Part shown: positions 36,208 to 58,053 of the stretch, piece by piece
How the letters are laid out: each line of letters begins with the position of its first letter
Numbering within the stretch: position 1 is the stretch's first letter
From: a bacterium
Lineage (GTDB): Bacteria; Bdellovibrionota_C; UBA2361; RFPC01
Assembly: GCA_030431715.1 (NCBI GenBank)
Contig: JAUIIO010000008.1
Coordinates: forward strand, 1 to 64,000
Reading direction: 5' to 3'
Length of the DNA: 64,000 nt
Position numbers and translations under genes: made by a program
Notes under the pieces: generated by a model
What the model saw: only the letters and a program-made list of their open reading frames with translations
Told to the model about the DNA's origin: nothing
Databases searched by the model: none

Positions 36208-36810
36208 ATGTACTGTCAACATGTTAGAGCATTCCTAGGTATAACGCTATGGTTTCTTCTCACCTTCCCGACTCTGCTCGTAGCCAACGATTCAATCCCA
36301 TTTAAGCTACCAGCACCGCAAGATCTCTCACGCATCAGGAGTGCAATGCTCGTTACGAGCAAGGGAAAGATCTATTTCAAGCTCTACCCAAAAGATGCTC
36401 CGTGGCACGTAGCGAACTTTAAATATCTGGCCGATAAAGGATTTTACAGAGGTAAGCGCTTTCACCTGTTTCACGAGAACTACATCATTCAGGGCGGAGC
36501 CCCGACGAAAAATCCCAATAGCGGTCCAGGATATACTCTTCCTCCCGAATTCAACGACCGCACACACCTTACCGGCACCTTGGGAATGGCTCGTAAGATA
36601 GATCTGCTAAATAAATCAAGAAGATCAAACGGGAGTCAATTTCATATCCTGCTCGATGACTCTCCGCACTTAAACGGAACACTTACCGTATTTGGCCGGG
36701 TCGTTAAGGGAATGGATGTAGTGAGAAAACTCAGGAAGGGAGACACGATCAAAGATCTTAAGGTTTATGTGAAAGCCAATACACTCAAACCCACCATACC
36801 ATCACCTTGA
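36208..36810 (+). CDS. secreted cyclophilin-type peptidyl-prolyl isomerase
   Basis: A signal peptide (GITLWFLLTFPTLLVAND) precedes a bacterial cyclophilin domain with the FHENYIIQGGAP, GTLGMARK, GSQFHILL and FGRVVKGMDVV landmarks. The isomerase speeds folding of proline-containing proteins, probably in the periplasm. The catalytic Arg expected in the FHR motif is Leu here (RFHLFHENY), and the binding-site Trp is His, so activity is doubtful. The last codons (TLKPTIPSP) lie inside the first unit of the tandem repeat, so the C-terminus appears to overlap repeat DNA. Confidence 0.82.
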   Translation: MYCQHVRAFLGITLWFLLTFPTLLVANDSIPFKLPAPQDLSRIRSAMLVTSKGKIYFKLYPKDAPWHVANFKYLADKGFYRGKRFHLFHENYIIQGGAPTKNPNSGPGYTLPPEFNDRTHLTGTLGMARKIDLLNKSRRSNGSQFHILLDDSPHLNGTLTVFGRVVKGMDVVRKLRKGDTIKDLKVYVKANTLKPTIPSP

Positions 36811-37181
36811 CCTTAACCTGAACCTATACCTGCTCCAAATTTTCTTTTTTGTCTAGGTTAAGGTTCAGGTCTAGGTGCAGGTGTGTCTTACTACAGATAC
36901 GGGACACGCATGCCACCCCAAAATATAGCAACAAACCCAAACCCACCGAATAATTACCTTGACCTTAACCTAGACCTATACCTGCTCCAAAATTCCTTTT
37001 GGTCTAGGTTAAGGTTCAGGTCTAGGTGCAGGTATCTCCTACTACAGATATGGGGCACGCATGCCCTCAAAAAATAGCAACAAACTCAAACCCACCACAC
37101 CATTACCTTGACCTTAACCTGAACCTATACCTGCTCCAAAATTCTTTTGGTCTAGGTTAAGGTTTAGGTCAAGGTATAGGT
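36804..37181. repeat. three tandem hexamer-periodic hairpins
   Basis: Three copies start at 36804, 36956 and 37105 (spacings 152 and 149). Each has a left arm of ACCT every six bases (ACCTTGACCTTAACCT...), a short loop with CTCCAAA...TTTTGG, and a right arm of AGGT every six bases (CTAGGTTAAGGTTCAGG...). The arms end at 36882, 37033 and 37181. Linkers share ACTACAGATA, CACGCATGCC, TAGCAACAAAC and CAAACCCACC. The block fills the whole gap between the convergent cyclophilin and PBP1A genes. Confidence 0.85.
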
Positions 37182-37202: not shown

Positions 37203-39620
37203 CTATAGATCCGGCGAACTCAGATAATCAGTAGCTTCCTCTTCCCATGCCGGTGCAGGTGGTGCGGTTCCTTCGCGGAAATATTCATAGATAGCACCCG
37301 GAGTTCCAGGTTCAACTTTTGTTCCCGACTCACGACTTACCCACATGCCATACACTCCCTCAGGCGGGATAAAATCTGCTGGTTCAAGCTTCTCTGGGGC
37401 TGTGTACTCAATCCCGAGTTTTTCAGCTTCAGCCTTTGCGGCTTCTTCAAGTTCGGCTAGCTTTCTTCTATCAACTTCATCAAGAAACGGCTTCATAGCG
37501 TTTAACCAGATTGGACTCGCCACCCGTCCTCCGGTTTCTTTGGCTCCAATCGTTTTCTTTACATCGTAACCAACCCAGACCGCAGCAGCCCACTCAGGGG
37601 TATATCCAACGTACCACGCATCCATCTGGTCGTTTGAGGTACCAGTCTTTCCGGCTGCAGGGCGTTTCATCTCTCGAATTCTCCATCCCGTTCCTCTATC
37701 AACTACACCTTTCATAAGGTATGCCATCAGAAACGCACTCTGAGGTGAGATAACCTGCTCTGCTTTCTCAAGAACATGATCTTCATAATTGTAAAGCTCA
37801 CCGCCATGTCTATCGACAACCCTTTCAATAAAGACACTTGGAAATAAAACTCCCTTGTTGGCAAAGACTCCGTAAGCTCTGGCAAGCTCTAGTGGAGTAA
37901 CCTCGCTACTTCCAAGAGATAGTGAGAGGTTCCGCCCAAGCTTACTCGTAATTCCCAATTTTCTCGCGTAACGAATGGCAGCCTCAACGCCAATGCGGGA
38001 GATAATGTCCGCCGACACAAGGTTACGTGACTTTTCGAGCGCCGACCTCAGTGGGATATCGCCCAGATAAGACTGATCATAGTTTCCAGGCGTCCAATAG
38101 CTCTCCCCTACCTTAAATGTTCTTGGACCATCATGGACAAGTGTCGATGCCGTATACCGATACCCATCAACAGCCGCCAGATAGACAATTGGCTTAAAAG
38201 CTGAACCAGGCTGTCGGTAACTCTGCGTAACCCGATTAAACTTACTACGACGAAAACTATACCCACCGATATCAGCTACTACTTTTCCATTAGCAGGATT
38301 AACGATAACCACTGCACCTTCAAGCACTGGGGTTTGATCAAGTTTATACTGATAGGACAGTGGCGTACTCTCTTTCCCTTCCAGCGCATGAACCGAAACT
38401 TCAACCACATCACCAGAACGAAGCTCTTGCTCGGGCTTACTCCAGCGAACCTTTCCATCTTTGCCAAGCATTTTCTTTGCCCACGCGGATTTAGAAAGAT
38501 CAAGCTGAACTTCCTTTAGTCCCACAATAGCAATGACTCTTCCAGCAACGAGAGATTTAACATACGCCGGATAAAGAACTCCTTCTTCATGCTCTGTTGG
38601 AATCTGCGAATGATAGGCATCTCGGTACTCAGCTTCACTTTCTAGGTGGTTTATAGGCCCTCGCCATCCGACACGTTTATCTACCTCACGCAATCCCTGC
38701 TGCAGCGCTACCTTAGCGGCGTTACTCGCAAAGAGATCAACCGCGGTGTGTATTTCTAAACCATCCCGATCAAGATCTAATTCAGGAAACTTTTCTTGAA
38801 AGAGGCGACGAACCTCGGTCACATAGTAGGGAGCCGCTTCAATATTATCATGACTCATTCGGTATACTTCTATCTCCTCCCTGAGCGCGGCTTTATATTC
38901 AACAGGAGAGATAAATTCAGCTTTAAGCATTCGATCAAGCACATAGCGTTGACGTCTTTTAGCTAGTTTGAAGTTTGATGTAGGGGAATAGCGCGAAGGA
39001 GCCTTTGGAAGTCCGGCTAACATTGCCGCTTCAGCAATAGTTACCTCTGAAATAGGCTTATGAAAGTAAAATTTTACGGCTGCTTTAATCCCGTGAGCAC
39101 CATTACCAAAGTAAATCTGGTTCAGGTAAATTTCTAAGATATCATCTTTTGAGAGGCGCTGTTCAATCCGGTACGCAAGAATTGCCTCTTTAAGTTTTCG
39201 GGTAATGGTTTTCTCTGAGGTGAGAAGGAGGTTTTTTACCACCTGCTGAGTAATAGTAGATCCACCCTGTTTTGAGCTCCCAGTTTGTAAGTTTTTAACA
39301 AATGCCCGAAAGATACTGACGAAATCGATCCCGGGGTGCTCATAGAAGGATGCATCTTCCGCAGCTAGGAAGGCATTACGAGCAATCAGGGGAATCTCTT
39401 CGATTTTTACCGGATAGCGACGTTCATCTTCATAAAACTCAGCTATCGGAGTTCCATCTGAGGCATAGACAAAGCTTGCAGCTGGCGGCGAGTAATCCGC
39501 CACTTCATTAAGCTGCGGAAGGTCTCTGGTGATATAGTGATATCCCCAAACGACAAAGACCCCGCCGGCAAGAGCACCAAGAAAACATAATATGAAGAAT
39601 ATGAGAAAAAGCTTTTTCAT
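37203..39620 (-). CDS. mrcA: bifunctional penicillin-binding protein 1A
   Basis: The 805-residue class A PBP polymerises and cross-links peptidoglycan. The N-terminal membrane helix is followed by a GT51 transglycosylase domain (AAEDASFYEHPGIDF at about residue 87, GGSTITQQVVKN and RKLKEAILAYRIE). A PBP1A-type insertion and the transpeptidase domain follow, with SAFK (catalytic Ser about 470), SRN and KTGTSND (about 660). All expected catalytic residues are present. It shares base 39620 with the next gene upstream and closes the Gld-type operon. Confidence 0.95.
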   Translation of the reverse strand: MKKLFLIFFILCFLGALAGGVFVVWGYHYITRDLPQLNEVADYSPPAASFVYASDGTPIAEFYEDERRYPVKIEEIPLIARNAFLAAEDASFYEHPGIDFVSIFRAFVKNLQTGSSKQGGSTITQQVVKNLLLTSEKTITRKLKEAILAYRIEQRLSKDDILEIYLNQIYFGNGAHGIKAAVKFYFHKPISEVTIAEAAMLAGLPKAPSRYSPTSNFKLAKRRQRYVLDRMLKAEFISPVEYKAALREEIEVYRMSHDNIEAAPYYVTEVRRLFQEKFPELDLDRDGLEIHTAVDLFASNAAKVALQQGLREVDKRVGWRGPINHLESEAEYRDAYHSQIPTEHEEGVLYPAYVKSLVAGRVIAIVGLKEVQLDLSKSAWAKKMLGKDGKVRWSKPEQELRSGDVVEVSVHALEGKESTPLSYQYKLDQTPVLEGAVVIVNPANGKVVADIGGYSFRRSKFNRVTQSYRQPGSAFKPIVYLAAVDGYRYTASTLVHDGPRTFKVGESYWTPGNYDQSYLGDIPLRSALEKSRNLVSADIISRIGVEAAIRYARKLGITSKLGRNLSLSLGSSEVTPLELARAYGVFANKGVLFPSVFIERVVDRHGGELYNYEDHVLEKAEQVISPQSAFLMAYLMKGVVDRGTGWRIREMKRPAAGKTGTSNDQMDAWYVGYTPEWAAAVWVGYDVKKTIGAKETGGRVASPIWLNAMKPFLDEVDRRKLAELEEAAKAEAEKLGIEYTAPEKLEPADFIPPEGVYGMWVSRESGTKVEPGTPGAIYEYFREGTAPPAPAWEEEATDYLSSPDL

Positions 39621-46334: not shown

Positions 46335-49300
46335 TTACTTCTTCCTATTTCGACGAATAAACCTTAAATCTCTTCTACGAAGTGCATGATGGAGCCCTCC
46401 CTGATCCCAGTAGTATGAACCTCTGTAATTCTTCGGACGTGAACTCACTCGAAAGCGATTCGATTTTAGAAAGACTCTGTAATCGCCACCGGGCACAACG
46501 ATAGACCAAGAAAATGGGTCTGTTACATCGGCTTTATACGTTCTCTTTGTGCGGTTATTTTTTGCTACTACTTCGATATCACCAGCTTCAAAGGAGCTAA
46601 GGATTTTATACATCCTGTCGCCTTCAACGATCGGTCGGCCGTTTTTCCCTTTTAGAGCACCACTTAACGTTATTGGCTCACCTTCACAGTAATCAAGTGG
46701 ATGGGTAACTCTCATTACTTCATCCCCATCGTAGTGGTAGAGAACAACGGTATTACGCCCGGACAGCTTGGTCGTAGAAAAAATTACTTCCGAGTTCGCA
46801 CCAACATCGTAAACATCACGTTCTGTTGTATCTGGCTGAAGAACTTCTATTTCAATAGGAACCTCGCTTCCATTAGGATTCGTAATTTTCCAACGGATGG
46901 TTTCCTCTGGCTCTTCATCGCCAGTGCAGGCTCCTCTACTATCACCATGGGCCTCGTGTGCAGACAACGCGGAAGGAGAGATGCTTATAGATTGACGATT
47001 TTCAGGATTGCCCGGTGGCATATGACAGATCGTTACCTTCTCATTTCCGCCGTGTTCATTATCATTTTCACATGCGCCATCAGAATCTCCGTGAGCTCGG
47101 TGAGCAGCAAGTGCAGATCTCGATATTGTTATGGAATGTGCATTTTCAGGATTCCCCGGTGGGATGTGACAGATAGTGACTTTTTTATCATTATCGTTCT
47201 TGTTCGACGATCTCGTATGAGACTGACTTCTACTGCGCTTCTTCTTCTTTGCAAAGGAGCTTGGTGGTTCAACACAGAGAGCTTCAAGAACAAGTCCCTG
47301 CTCTTCACAGTCCATGATTCCATTATTATTAAGATCCGTATCAACTTCCCCACAGCCGCAAAGTCCTGGATAAATCTTATTACTATCTAACTCACAGAGA
47401 TCCTGACAGTCAGGAGTACCATCACCATCAGAATCAGTATCAGCTATTCCACAACCGCATGCGCCAGGGCTAACTTTCTCAGGGTCGTTTTCACATCCAT
47501 CCTGACACTGAAAATATCCATCATTATCCTTATCAATATCTGCTTCACCACATCCGCAGACACCGGGATCAGATTTACGGTTATCGTACTTACAAAGGTC
47601 GTTACAATCTGATACGCCATCCAGATCGGTATCTGTATCCGCTATGCCGCATCCACATTGTCCGGGCTCGATTTTTTGCGGGTCGGTTATACAACTATCC
47701 AGACAATCAAGCGTGCCATCACGATCGGAGTCATAATCGGCAACACCGCACCCACATACTCCGGGTTCGATTTTTTTAGAATCCGTACTACAGGAGTCAT
47801 TACAATCAAGGGTGCCATCACCATCAGAATCAATATCAGGGAGTCCGCAGCCACATGTGCCTGGTGCAGTTTTATTCGGATCCGTATCACATTGATCATT
47901 ACACAGGAGAACCCCATCACCATCAGCATCAACGTCAGCTATGCCGCATCCACACGCTCCTGGGGCAGTTTTCCCGCGGTCAGTTGGGCAGAGATCCTCA
48001 CAATCTGCTACGCCATCTCCGTCCCGATCGCGGTCAGAGATTCCACAGCCACACACACCGGGCTCAGCTTTTCTCGGGTCCTCATCACAGAGATCAAGAC
48101 AATCGGCAATGCCATCACCATCGGTATCAGTATCAACGCTTCCGCAACCACAATATCCGGGTATTGATTTAAGAGGGTCTAAAATACAGAGATCCTCACA
48201 GTCTGCTACTCCGTCTCCATCAGTATCGGTATCAGCGATACCACAGCCGCATATACCCTCTTCTTGCTTTAATGGGTCGAAAGGACACTCATCATTACAA
48301 TCAAGTTCTTCGTCTGAATCTGAATCAATGTCAGGAACACCACATCCGCAGATACCAGGTTCTGTTTTAAGTGGATCTTCATCACAGGCTTCATCGCACT
48401 GGAGAACCCCATCATTGTCAAAATCAATATCAGCGGAGCCACATCCACATTCGCCTGGCTCTAATTTCAAATCGTCAAAGGCACAGAGATCTTCACAATC
48501 AGCTGTACCGTCTCCGTCACTATCTTTATCACTCTCACCGCAACCACAAATTCCTGGCTCAAGCTTCTTAGGGTCTTCAGGACAGAGATCGAGGCAATCA
48601 CATGTAGAATCGTTATCGCTATCGATATCTGGCTCTCCGCAACCACATTGCCCGGCCTCTGTTTTTAGAGGATCGAACATGCACTCATCCCGACAATCAG
48701 GAACCCCATCTTCATCAGTATCTCTTTCATCCACTCCACATCCGCAGATACCCTCGCGAATTTTTAGGGGATCAAATGGGCACTCATCATTACAATCAAG
48801 GGTCTCATCACCATCAATGTCAGTATCTGCTCTCCCGCAGCCACACTCACCAGGCTCAAGTTTAAATGGATCAGTATCACACAGATCTTCACATTGAAGG
48901 ACACCATCGCCATCAAGATCAATATCAGCTATTCCGCAACCACACTCGCCTGGTTCAACCTTGTATCGGTCCGTAGGGCAGAGGTCTTCACAATCAGGGG
49001 TTTCATCTCCGTCACGGTCTCTATCTGATATTCCACAGCCACACATTCCGGGCTCGGTCTTTTGTGAGTCATCTACACAAAGATCAATACAATCAGAAGT
49101 TCCATCACCATCAGTATCCGTATCTGCTGTGCCACATCCACAAACTCCCGGCTCTACTTTAAGCGGATCACTACTACAGCTATCGTTACAATCGAGCGTA
49201 CCATCACCATCAGTGTCTGTTGGATCATCCGCTATACCACAACCACAAATGCCGGCATCAATCTTTAAAGGGTCTTCAAAACAGGTATCTACACAGTTAG

Positions 49301-51563
49301 CAGTTCCATCACCATCTGTATCCGTCTCGGCATTACCACACCCACACTGCCCAGGCTCTACTTTGTCAGCGTCAGTGCTGCAAGAATCATTGCAATTTGC
49401 CACGCCATCGTTATCAGAATCGGTATCTGGGGTTCCGCAACCACACTGCCCCGGTTCCATCTTGGAACCATCTAGAGGGCAGAGATCACGCTCACAAGTA
49501 AAGTGAAGATTCAGCACATTACCGTTCGCAACACTGCTGTATTCCTGCGGCTCACAGCCAAAGTTTGGATCGGTAACACGGATAAGGCAGTTAGAGCCAT
49601 CGCTCACACTTATAAAGTAATATCCACTACTATCGCTCACGATGGTACGAGCAACACCATTCTCGTAGAAGGTCATCTGAACTTCAGGAATAGGATTTCC
49701 GTTCTCGTCTAGAATTCTACCGCTGTATATAAAAGAGCCTTCTTGCGTGATTTGAAAATTAGTTTGCTCTTCATTACACGAGATATAAGGATAGGATATT
49801 CCAGCAGGATCGAAGAACTCATCATTGTATTCAGCAGTTACCCAGTTATCTGACTGAGCAGGAACATTGAACTTATACTCACCATTGGCGTCTGTTACGG
49901 TTATGGACTGATGGTTATTTAGAATCGTAGCGCCAGGTAACCGCTGTCCAAGGGTGTCGAGTACAATACCACTAATTTCATATTCATCTTCAGGATCACA
50001 CCACTCTGGAATATATCCATTTTCTAAGCCGCTTGTGGACGCAAAGGTGTGAAAGTTTACTTTTGAGTGATGTTCTTCAACGGACTTGATTTCTATGCGC
50101 TTTGGGTCAAAGACAAAGTCATCAGAAGATGCTTCCAGCACAATAGTATCGCCATTATTCGCCTGAAAGGAATATGTACCATCCTGACGAGATATAGCCG
50201 TCTGCACACCATTTGCAAGAATTTTTACCTGTGGAAATGGCGCTCCATTAGGTCCCCTTACAGAACCTGAGATAGTATGCCTTTCCGCATCTGGCGATGA
50301 GCAAACTGCCGTGTAGCTCTTTTCTGGAGCTAGAGTTCCAAGAGCGCAGAAAGAGAATGCGTCACCTGATGGATCACTAAACGCACAACCTGCTTGATTG
50401 GCAACTACTTCCACCTTATCGTTTAGCGTTGTTGCATCACCATTATCACAGCCGTACTGCATCTGAACTGGGAAGTATGCAACTCCGTCCTTAGAAGTTG
50501 TATGTGTTCGATTCGATTGACACTGCGAAAGACCACTCGATACTCCAACATCGATACCAGAAACTGGATTTCCATCGGCATCTTGAAATGTAGCTGTACC
50601 AACTTGTTGATACTTGTATATTGGATTTGCAAAGAACTTACATACGTTATCAGGACACGTTCCGGGAGATACTACGATCTCAGGTGGATAAAATTGATAT
50701 CTCCCAACCGGAATAACACGAAAACTACTATTGATCCCTATACCAAGTGTTGCCGTTGAAACACTGGCTACTCCACTTCCATTGGTAACCAGTGTTGTTC
50801 CCTGAGGATAAACCTTAAGTGGAGTTATAATCGGAAGGTTGTTGGTAGCGCGTACTTCGAAATGGTAGGTACCCTCTACTTTTTGAGGAGGACTCTCAAG
50901 GTCGCTACACTCAGCCAGATATTGTAGAGTCGTACTTGTCGTAGGACAAAGATTTCCTCCCTGAAGTGGTGTAAACGTACAACTCTTCCCGTTTGGTGCG
51001 GAAAGTATCACCTTCGAATAGTCATTTAATGGGTCAAAATCTACATCACTACAAGCTGCTGTCCGCTTTCTCGTTGAAAAATGGAGGCTTCCGTCAGTTC
51101 CTGTAACTTCTGGACACGCATACTCAAGACCACTAATGACTCCAGTCACCCCATCAATGCCATTTCCATCTGCATCAAGGACCTCAACTTTGAGCACAAC
51201 TGTTTCGTTCACATCAGGAGTCGCTACGACCTCACAAACATTGTCCGGACACGTTTCACTACCAACTTCAAGATAGTCAGGTTCCATTTTATAACCCGAG
51301 AACGAGTAATAAAGTGTCGGAGATGAACTCTCAAGATCTCTAACATCAAATGACCAAGAGCCATCACTGCCAGAAACTCTCCCGTTTAATTCATTAATGC
51401 CATCAGTACCATGAATTTGTACTGCTTCTAGAGGATTCCCATTTGAATCTGTAAACTCGAGGGTGTATTGAAAATCAATCTGCTCTGAATAAGCAGAAGG
51501 CACCACAAATAAAACGAGAAGGACTACTTGTAAAAATATGAATCTTGAAACCGTACTACGCAA
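46335..51563 (-). CDS. giant secreted protein with 22 Cys/Asp repeats
   Basis: A signal peptide (VVLLVLFVVPSAYSEQ) precedes carboxypeptidase-regulatory-like and Cna-B-like modules (to about residue 685). Then come 22 units of about 33 residues, each with DxDxDGDG.xDCxDxC and ending in PGxCGCG, similar to calcium-binding thrombospondin type 3 repeats. Two copies of a VTICH.PPGNP...AH..HGD module follow (about residues 1450-1550), then a beta domain and a basic C-terminal tail (RRDLRFIRRNRKK). It is 1742 residues long. It is probably extracellular or surface-bound and rigidified by calcium and disulfides. No cell-wall sorting motif is seen. Confidence 0.85.
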   Translation of the reverse strand: MRSTVSRFIFLQVVLLVLFVVPSAYSEQIDFQYTLEFTDSNGNPLEAVQIHGTDGINELNGRVSGSDGSWSFDVRDLESSSPTLYYSFSGYKMEPDYLEVGSETCPDNVCEVVATPDVNETVVLKVEVLDADGNGIDGVTGVISGLEYACPEVTGTDGSLHFSTRKRTAACSDVDFDPLNDYSKVILSAPNGKSCTFTPLQGGNLCPTTSTTLQYLAECSDLESPPQKVEGTYHFEVRATNNLPIITPLKVYPQGTTLVTNGSGVASVSTATLGIGINSSFRVIPVGRYQFYPPEIVVSPGTCPDNVCKFFANPIYKYQQVGTATFQDADGNPVSGIDVGVSSGLSQCQSNRTHTTSKDGVAYFPVQMQYGCDNGDATTLNDKVEVVANQAGCAFSDPSGDAFSFCALGTLAPEKSYTAVCSSPDAERHTISGSVRGPNGAPFPQVKILANGVQTAISRQDGTYSFQANNGDTIVLEASSDDFVFDPKRIEIKSVEEHHSKVNFHTFASTSGLENGYIPEWCDPEDEYEISGIVLDTLGQRLPGATILNNHQSITVTDANGEYKFNVPAQSDNWVTAEYNDEFFDPAGISYPYISCNEEQTNFQITQEGSFIYSGRILDENGNPIPEVQMTFYENGVARTIVSDSSGYYFISVSDGSNCLIRVTDPNFGCEPQEYSSVANGNVLNLHFTCERDLCPLDGSKMEPGQCGCGTPDTDSDNDGVANCNDSCSTDADKVEPGQCGCGNAETDTDGDGTANCVDTCFEDPLKIDAGICGCGIADDPTDTDGDGTLDCNDSCSSDPLKVEPGVCGCGTADTDTDGDGTSDCIDLCVDDSQKTEPGMCGCGISDRDRDGDETPDCEDLCPTDRYKVEPGECGCGIADIDLDGDGVLQCEDLCDTDPFKLEPGECGCGRADTDIDGDETLDCNDECPFDPLKIREGICGCGVDERDTDEDGVPDCRDECMFDPLKTEAGQCGCGEPDIDSDNDSTCDCLDLCPEDPKKLEPGICGCGESDKDSDGDGTADCEDLCAFDDLKLEPGECGCGSADIDFDNDGVLQCDEACDEDPLKTEPGICGCGVPDIDSDSDEELDCNDECPFDPLKQEEGICGCGIADTDTDGDGVADCEDLCILDPLKSIPGYCGCGSVDTDTDGDGIADCLDLCDEDPRKAEPGVCGCGISDRDRDGDGVADCEDLCPTDRGKTAPGACGCGIADVDADGDGVLLCNDQCDTDPNKTAPGTCGCGLPDIDSDGDGTLDCNDSCSTDSKKIEPGVCGCGVADYDSDRDGTLDCLDSCITDPQKIEPGQCGCGIADTDTDLDGVSDCNDLCKYDNRKSDPGVCGCGEADIDKDNDGYFQCQDGCENDPEKVSPGACGCGIADTDSDGDGTPDCQDLCELDSNKIYPGLCGCGEVDTDLNNNGIMDCEEQGLVLEALCVEPPSSFAKKKKRSRSQSHTRSSNKNDNDKKVTICHIPPGNPENAHSITISRSALAAHRAHGDSDGACENDNEHGGNEKVTICHMPPGNPENRQSISISPSALSAHEAHGDSRGACTGDEEPEETIRWKITNPNGSEVPIEIEVLQPDTTERDVYDVGANSEVIFSTTKLSGRNTVVLYHYDGDEVMRVTHPLDYCEGEPITLSGALKGKNGRPIVEGDRMYKILSSFEAGDIEVVAKNNRTKRTYKADVTDPFSWSIVVPGGDYRVFLKSNRFRVSSRPKNYRGSYYWDQGGLHHALRRRDLRFIRRNRKK
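47300..49500. repeat. 22 tandem ~99-bp coding repeats
   Basis: The repeat units lie within the giant gene and are diverged, so they are not perfect at the DNA level. The spacing is 33 codons, with one unit two codons longer (the unit with ADDPTD). Protein-level comparison shows that units five apart are more alike than neighbours. On the opposite strand they create long open frames that are not genes. Confidence 0.85.
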
Positions 51564-57699: not shown

Positions 57700-57982
57700 C
57701 CTCCCTCGTCCTCCTCTTAATCCTTCTCTTCCTCCTCCTCTTAATCTTGCACTTGCACCTTACTCCAAAGGTATGTCATTGCGAGGAGCTGAGGCGATAG
57801 CCGAACGACGAAGCAATCTCCTCGAGGTGGCTTCAACTGCTATGGGATTGCTTCGTCGTTCGACCTGCGGTCTCAGCTCCTCGCAATGACGGCTGGCTTC
57901 GTGCAAGTGCAAGAGGAAGAGGAAGAGGAAGAGGAAGAGGAAGAGGAAGAGGAAGAGGAAGAGGAAGAGGAAGAGGAAGAAT
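57700..57982. repeat. nested hairpin element with polypyrimidine/GAGGAA arms
   Basis: Within the gene-free stretch 57639-58053, a pyrimidine-rich left arm (57700-57745) faces a right arm of 11 GAGGAA units (57913-57980). Inside these, CTTGCACTTGCAC (57746-57758) pairs exactly with GTGCAAGTGCAAG (57901-57913). The loop holds palindromic repeat R4. The left loop edge carries CTCCAAA, also found in the 36.8-kb hairpins. Confidence 0.75.
57775..57890. repeat. palindromic intergenic repeat, copy R4 (complete)
   Basis: This is the most symmetrical copy: GTCATTGCGAGGAGCTGAG at its left end is exactly inverted at its right end, as are CGAACGACGAAGCAATC inward from both. It sits in the loop of the larger hairpin and looks like a miniature element inserted there. 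Confidence 0.75.
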
Positions 57983-58053
57983 AGGGAAATCCCTAGGGAT
58001 GTCCAATAAAACCCTTAGAATTTCTCAGATACGGAGTGAATGCTTACACAGTC

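What the first reader, a model, noticed from the sequence alone, without database searches (positions are those of the whole stretch)
36804..37181. Tandem hairpins with hexanucleotide-periodic arms between convergent genes
Three units of about 150 bp each form a hairpin. The left arm carries ACCT every six bases and the right arm AGGT every six bases, so the arms can pair in register or shifted by six. Linkers of about 70 bp are also repeated. The unit begins inside the end of the cyclophilin gene, so the last residues of that protein come from repeat DNA. The block fills the space between two convergent genes. It is seen directly. That it acts as a bidirectional terminator, protein-binding array or RNA element is inference.
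Basis: partly seen in the sequence, partly recalled or inferred. Interest (0 to 1): 0.62.

Follow-up and report, generated by a model that had tools for sequence, protein, structure and literature searches.

The report
Dispersed hairpins built from six-base words
This is one copy, tripled in place, of a family of hairpin-forming DNA repeats that lies just behind the ends of many genes in this bacterium and some distant relatives; its stems are strings of six-base 'words' with a fixed core, a build I found described nowhere, while its behaviour is that of ordinary bacterial intergenic palindromes.

Summary
Three hairpins (36804-36882, 36956-37033, 37105-37181), arms (ACCTNN)5/(AGGTNN)5, repeat every 149-152 bp, fill the gap between convergent cyclophilin and PBP1A genes and supply the cyclophilin stop codon. 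They fold at -34 to -41 kcal/mol (z -4 to -7).

They belong to a dispersed family: 122 four-word arms in the genome against 0 in the backwards control. Widening the core to (CYTNNN)n/(ARGNNN)n finds hairpins with other vocabularies in 8 of 46 genomes of the same phylum, four with tens of matches, and only single matches in 3 of 337 others.

In class A just 7 of 16 NN words make up 99% of 281-336 words (chi2 229). Word order is non-random, and NN barely matches between paired arms, so the fixed ACCT/AGGT core carries the stem in any register.

Placement matches REP elements: outside genes, median 16 nt after stops, about 20-fold sparser between divergent genes. Orthologous gaps are filled or empty (2 of about 14 shared; background about 8%), so copies turn over and are not conserved terminators. 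RAYT genes are flanked by other repeats, and there are no target duplications except in one relative, where the hairpin rides on a MITE.

Verdict: a REP-like dispersed palindrome family with unusual, apparently undescribed arms. Termination is possible but unproven.

The parts
36804..36882 (.). Hairpin unit 1: left arm (ACCTNN)5 36804-36833, loop, right arm (AGGTNN)5 36855-36882
   Evidence: sequence; inverted repeats; RNA fold -39.1 kcal/mol, z -6.8
36956..37033 (.). Hairpin unit 2: arms 36956-36983 and 37006-37033
   Evidence: fold -36.2 kcal/mol, z -6.4
37105..37181 (.). Hairpin unit 3: arms 37105-37132 and 37154-37181
   Evidence: fold -41.2 kcal/mol, z -6.3
36883..36955 (.). Repeated linker 1, duplicated along with the hairpin
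   Evidence: direct repeats, alignment
37034..37104 (.). Repeated linker 2
36775..36810 (+). 3' end of the cyclophilin gene made of repeat DNA; stop codon TGA 36808-36810 lies in the first ACCTTGACC
   Evidence: ORF 36208-36810; alignment of the three units
36208..36810 (+). Flanking gene: cyclophilin-type peptidyl-prolyl isomerase
   Evidence: Pfam PF00160, 5e-36
37203..39620 (-). Flanking convergent gene: class A penicillin-binding protein (PBP1A type)
   Evidence: Pfam Transgly 2e-68, Transpeptidase 6e-34
57703..57983 (.). Second element of the superfamily in the window (class C, TCCTCN/CTTNNN arms with an expanded (AAGAGG)12 right arm), between genes
   Evidence: period-6 scan, tandem repeat finder 57911-57980

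Best explanation
A family of dispersed intergenic palindromic repeats that works like REP/BIME elements but has a stem of its own kind. Each arm is a string of hexamer words with a fixed core (ACCT here; CCT or CTT across the superfamily), so the two arms can pair in any register although the variable letters differ. Copies arise by an unknown mobile or copying step and by local tandem duplication, and persist behind stop codons, where they are transcribed as a long stable hairpin at the mRNA 3' end. In this window one copy has landed in, or duplicated through, the end of the cyclophilin gene, was tripled by a ~150-bp tandem duplication, and fills the gap to the convergent PBP1A gene. Shown: the family, the word build, the placement, the turnover between genera, the predicted fold. 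Inferred: transcription, any effect on mRNA ends, and the spreading mechanism.
For: Dispersal: 63+59 four-word arms in the own genome, control 0; hairpins with unrelated flanks and loops. Placement: none inside genes in 840 kb; arms per kb of gap 2.1 convergent, 0.85 tandem, 0.1 divergent; in tandem gaps median 16 nt after the stop and 120 nt before the next start, 11 of 12 nearer the stop. The REP literature describes the same placement (PMC3733652). Turnover: orthologues of G001 genes carrying an element have one in G000 in only 2 of about 14 cases (background about 8% of genes); a conserved convergent pair has 136 bp with a hairpin in G001 and about 35 bp without one at G000:C28:~321.06 kb; another such gap is filled with REP-type repeats instead. 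Structure: z -4 to -7; in G001 locus-specific words match between arms (0.84 vs 0.49 re-paired, 0/500). Word build: 7 of 16 NN words = 99%, chi2 229, ordered.
Against: No mobilising enzyme identified: Y1 (RAYT-like) transposase genes exist in all seven genomes tested, but the two in this genome are flanked by other palindromes. No target duplications in G000, G001 or G032. Single arms occur, which a hairpin-only function does not need. No transcript data. My gene calls are home-made.
Confidence: 0.62

Rival explanations
1. Selected bidirectional transcription terminators: the palindrome stops RNA polymerase for both convergent genes.
For: Tight fit between convergent stop codons; bidirectional symmetry; very stable fold; canonical intrinsic terminators are scarce in this genome.
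Against: No U-tract behind the stem; canonical terminators are equally scarce in gaps without the element (1/22 vs 9/90 convergent); not conserved at orthologous 3' ends; REPs show the same placement.
Confidence: 0.18
2. Rho loading sites: the C-rich, CYT-repeating 5' arm exposed just after the stop codon recruits Rho, and the palindrome is simply two such sites facing each other from convergent genes.
For: Pyrimidine arm comes first on the sense strand in 21 of 25 tandem gaps, and lone CYT arms occur; hairpin polarity CYT-first 59:2, 48:0 and 44:0 in G000, G011 and G032.
Against: Polarity is mixed in G001 (27:11) and G008 (3:6); a complementary purine arm 15-100 nt downstream would sequester the site; the strict word vocabulary is not needed for Rho.
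Confidence: 0.1
3. Remnants of MITEs: the hairpin is internal cargo of an insertion-sequence-derived miniature transposon whose ends have decayed.
For: In relative G011 a hexamer-phased hairpin sits inside a ~180-bp element with GTAATTGCTCA.../...TGAGCAATTAC ends and 8-bp target duplications (4 exact, several 7/8). The ends and 8-bp duplication recall IS66-type elements (from memory).
Against: No such ends or duplications around copies in G000, G001 or G032; G001 loops are unrelated between copies.
Confidence: 0.15
4. Arrays of DNA-binding sites: each AGGTNN hexamer is a contact for a cooperatively binding protein, for example for chromosome organisation.
For: In the three window units the cores do not change while the NN letters do; only seven NN words are allowed; lone arms exist.
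Against: Core and vocabulary differ completely between genera of one family; confinement to gene 3' ends is not expected of a pure DNA site.
Confidence: 0.1

Closest known systems
REP / BIME / REPIN elements (GTAG- and CGTC-tagged palindromes, RAYT-associated)
   Same: Dispersed intergenic palindromes between convergent or tandem genes, close to upstream stop codons, rarely between divergent genes, often in tandem clusters, species-specific families (PMC3733652).
   Different: REPs are 20-40 bp with a tag tetranucleotide and no hexamer periodicity; this stem is ~78 bp of period-6 words, and the RAYT genes of this genome are flanked by other repeats.
MITEs with terminal inverted repeats (IS66-like ends in relative G011)
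   Same: Short, non-coding, palindromic, multicopy; in G011 the hexamer hairpin is the inside of such an element with 8-bp duplications.
   Different: No terminal repeats or target duplications at copies in this genome.
Bacterial stem-loop sequence families and hexanucleotide microsatellites
   Same: Some arms have expanded into plain hexamer repeats, e.g. (AAGAGG)12 at 57911-57980.
   Different: Most arms are not one repeated hexamer but ordered strings of several words with a shared core.
Intrinsic bidirectional terminators
   Same: Palindrome between convergent stop codons.
   Different: Stem far longer than usual, no U-tracts, turns over between genera.

Membership tests
REP elements (GTAG/CGTC superfamilies) | Dispersed palindromes in intergenic space, near 3' ends, rare between divergent genes | tested here: met
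REP elements (GTAG/CGTC superfamilies) | 20-40 bp palindrome tagged at one end by GTAG or CGTC | tested here: not met
   ~78-bp hairpins made of ACCTNN/AGGTNN words with no such tag
REP elements (GTAG/CGTC superfamilies) | Same repeats flank the RAYT gene (GTAG type) | tested here: not met
   Y1_Tnp genes at G000:C43:4646 and C44:147728 are flanked by GGGACG..CGTCCC and GGTACC..TTTTGAAAGG palindromes, not hexamer arms
MITE | Terminal inverted repeats with target-site duplication | tested here: not met
   3 of 52 flanks with a >=5-bp repeat in G000 (0.8 expected), 0 of 18 in G001, 1 of 9 in G032; met only for the G011 carrier
Intrinsic terminator | G+C-rich hairpin followed directly by a U-tract | tested here: not met
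   sequences behind the right arms
Intrinsic terminator | Transcripts end there | not testable with these tools
   no transcript data
Known RNA families | Match to an Rfam model | tested here: not met
   only a tRNA and SRP RNA in the window

The most novel reading that the evidence does not exclude
The arms are written in a restricted alphabet of hexamer words (in this genome ACCT plus one of GC, AG, GA, TA, AT, TG, AA, in a preferred order) because a phylum-specific machinery makes or reads them: either an enzyme that adds or copies hexamers, as telomerase-like or reverse-transcriptase systems do, or a repeat protein that reads one hexamer per module. Each lineage has switched to its own core and vocabulary while keeping the 6-base phase and the palindrome.
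Probability: 0.13. Interest if true: 0.85.

Novelty: new variant of a known kind. Interest (0 to 1): 0.55.

Why it matters
Dispersed bacterial palindromes are known in many families, but I found none described whose stems are ordered strings of phased hexamer words that pair in any register, with a different vocabulary in each genus. The pattern (fixed core, seven allowed dinucleotides, unmatched variable letters in one species but matched ones in a sister genus) makes the origin and upkeep of intergenic palindromes testable by comparing lineages. It also shows that a hairpin filling a convergent gap need not be a conserved terminator.

Tried and rejected
1) A single MITE family with TIRs and duplications: rejected for G000, G001 and G032, kept for G011. 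2) Mobilisation by the resident RAYTs: their flanks carry other REPs. 3) Conserved, gene-specific terminator: orthologue test negative. The PBP1A orthologue of G001 does carry a hexamer hairpin 32 bp behind its stop, but 2 of about 14 is what chance allows. 4) Stop-codon arrays: the five NN words that create stops (TG, TA, GA, AG, AA) are all in the vocabulary and make up 64% of words against 35% background, but the TCCT class and the G001 families share NN words without creating stops, so this stays unexplained. 5) Wide distribution: the strict pattern over 84,980 species' genomes gave 14 scattered single stretches, mostly coding or simple repeats; Geomonas and WOR-3 look-alikes are isolated. 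6) A 24,073-aa open frame on contig C2 is masked sequence (72,000 N), not a giant gene.

Full report
Observation. The block between the convergent cyclophilin (36208-36810, +) and PBP1A (37203-39620, -) genes holds three hairpins whose left arm is (ACCTNN)5 and right arm (AGGTNN)5, spaced 152 and 149 bp, with repeated linkers. All 18 ACCTNNACCTNNACCT matches of the window lie here, against 0.02 expected. The cyclophilin stop codon TGA (36808-36810) is part of the first ACCTTGACC, and about its last nine codons align with the linker of the other units. Predicted RNA folds are -34 to -41 kcal/mol with z-scores of -4.3 to -6.8 on both strands. Between the three units the ACCT/AGGT cores do not change while NN letters do, e.g. 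GA to AG.

A dispersed family. The window is G000:C7 of a 3.97-Mb, 56-contig genome. Four-word arms occur 63+59 times there, against 0 for the pattern read backwards; the paired-arm pattern matches 52 times (shifted matches of one hairpin count separately). Flanks and most loops are unrelated between copies, and several copies are locally duplicated (contigs 7, 15, 16, 28, 55). The strict hairpin pattern is absent from 45 other genomes of the phylum. In 84,980 species' genomes it gives only 14 scattered stretches, none a family (the own genome is left out there).

A wider architecture. The own genome has further arm classes, TCCTNN and TCCTCN/CTTNNN, and the generic form (CYTNNN)4-loop-(ARGNNN)4 is found in 8 of 46 genomes of the phylum (own 59, G011 48, G032 44, G001 27, four others 1-3) and once each in 3 of 337 genomes from elsewhere; the backwards control is 0-1. 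The core was chosen after seeing this family, so hairpins phased on other cores elsewhere are not excluded. Each genus has its own words: ACCTNN here, CTTGCT/CTTGCA/CTTCAT in G001 of the same family, CTTAGG-CTTGAA ends in G032. In G011 the hairpin is the inside of a ~180-bp element with GTAATTGCTCA/TGAGCAATTAC ends and 8-bp target duplications.

Words. In class A, 72 unique arms give 336 words; GC, AG, GA, TA, AT, TG and AA are 333 of them. With simple repeats removed, 281 words show strong dependence of the two letters (chi2 229, p about 1e-46; GG, GT, AC and TC absent), and word order is non-random (0 of 500 shuffles). The NN letters are barely complementary between the arms of one hairpin: no excess at word level (0.40 vs 0.42), a small one at letter level (0.69 vs 0.64, 12 of 500). 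So the core alone makes the stem register-free. In G001 the words do match between arms (0.84 vs 0.49, 0 of 500). That is either selection for the hairpin or template-directed correction of palindromes; the data do not separate the two.

Placement. In 840 kb of own sequence with my own gene calls, no hairpin lies inside a gene. Arms per kb of gap are 2.1 (convergent), 0.85 (tandem) and 0.1 (divergent). In tandem gaps hairpins start a median 16 nt after the upstream stop and end 120 nt before the next start. G032 has the same bias against divergent gaps. The pyrimidine arm comes first on the sense strand (21 of 25 tandem gaps), and CYT-first outnumbers ARG-first hairpins 59:2 here, 48:0 in G011 and 44:0 in G032, but not in G008 (3:6) and less so in G001 (27:11). 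REP elements show the same placement (PMC3733652).

Function or turnover. Canonical intrinsic terminators are scarce with and without the element, and no U-tract follows the stems. C-terminal fragments of 24 G001 genes with an element behind them were searched in the own genome. Of about 14 clear orthologues only two have an element at the 3' end (one is the window's PBP1A), against about 8% of genes overall. A conserved convergent pair has a 136-bp gap with a hairpin in G001 and about 35 bp without one here; another conserved convergent gap holds RAYT-type palindromes here instead. The elements therefore come and go. Y1-type transposase genes occur in all seven genomes tested, including hairpin-poor ones, and the two in the own genome sit among other repeats.

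Conclusion. Shown: a real, dispersed, phylum-restricted superfamily (as far as the generic pattern reaches) with hexamer-word arms and REP-like placement and turnover. Inferred: that it is transcribed as a 3'-end hairpin and may protect or end transcripts.

Noticed in passing
window 57703-57983: Another element of the superfamily, class C, with one arm expanded to about 12 copies of AAGAGG, behind a plus-strand gene.
   Followed up: partly
L227 (G000:C43 around 4646) and G000:C44:147.6-148.6 kb: Two Y1 (RAYT-like) transposase genes, each among its own palindromes: GGGACG..CGTCCC type and GGTACC..TTTTGAAAGG type.
   Followed up: partly
many own-genome loci, e.g. L040, L043, L053, L256, L277: A further palindromic repeat, GTCATTGCGAGGAGCTGAGG...GCGGCAATCTCC, often sits next to or inside the loop of hexamer hairpins.
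   Followed up: no
L052, L057, L062, L064: Repeats of the type AACCGCAAAGGACGCAAAGAGCGCAAAG next to hexamer elements, with an ~8-9 base period of their own.
   Followed up: no
L110, L112, L122, L125 and others (G011): A multicopy ~180-bp MITE with GTAA..TTAC ends and 8-bp duplications, often at contig ends.
   Followed up: partly
G000, about 35 places (query 2369-2468): Unusually many copies of a flagellin-like C-terminal domain in one genome (identity judged by eye from the query sequence).
   Followed up: no
G000:C2:31820-104041: Apparent 24,073-aa open frame is a masked stretch of 72,000 N, an artefact.
   Followed up: yes
window 47703-47886: Two copies of a 99-bp direct repeat in the 1742-aa ORF 46335-51563.
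   Followed up: no
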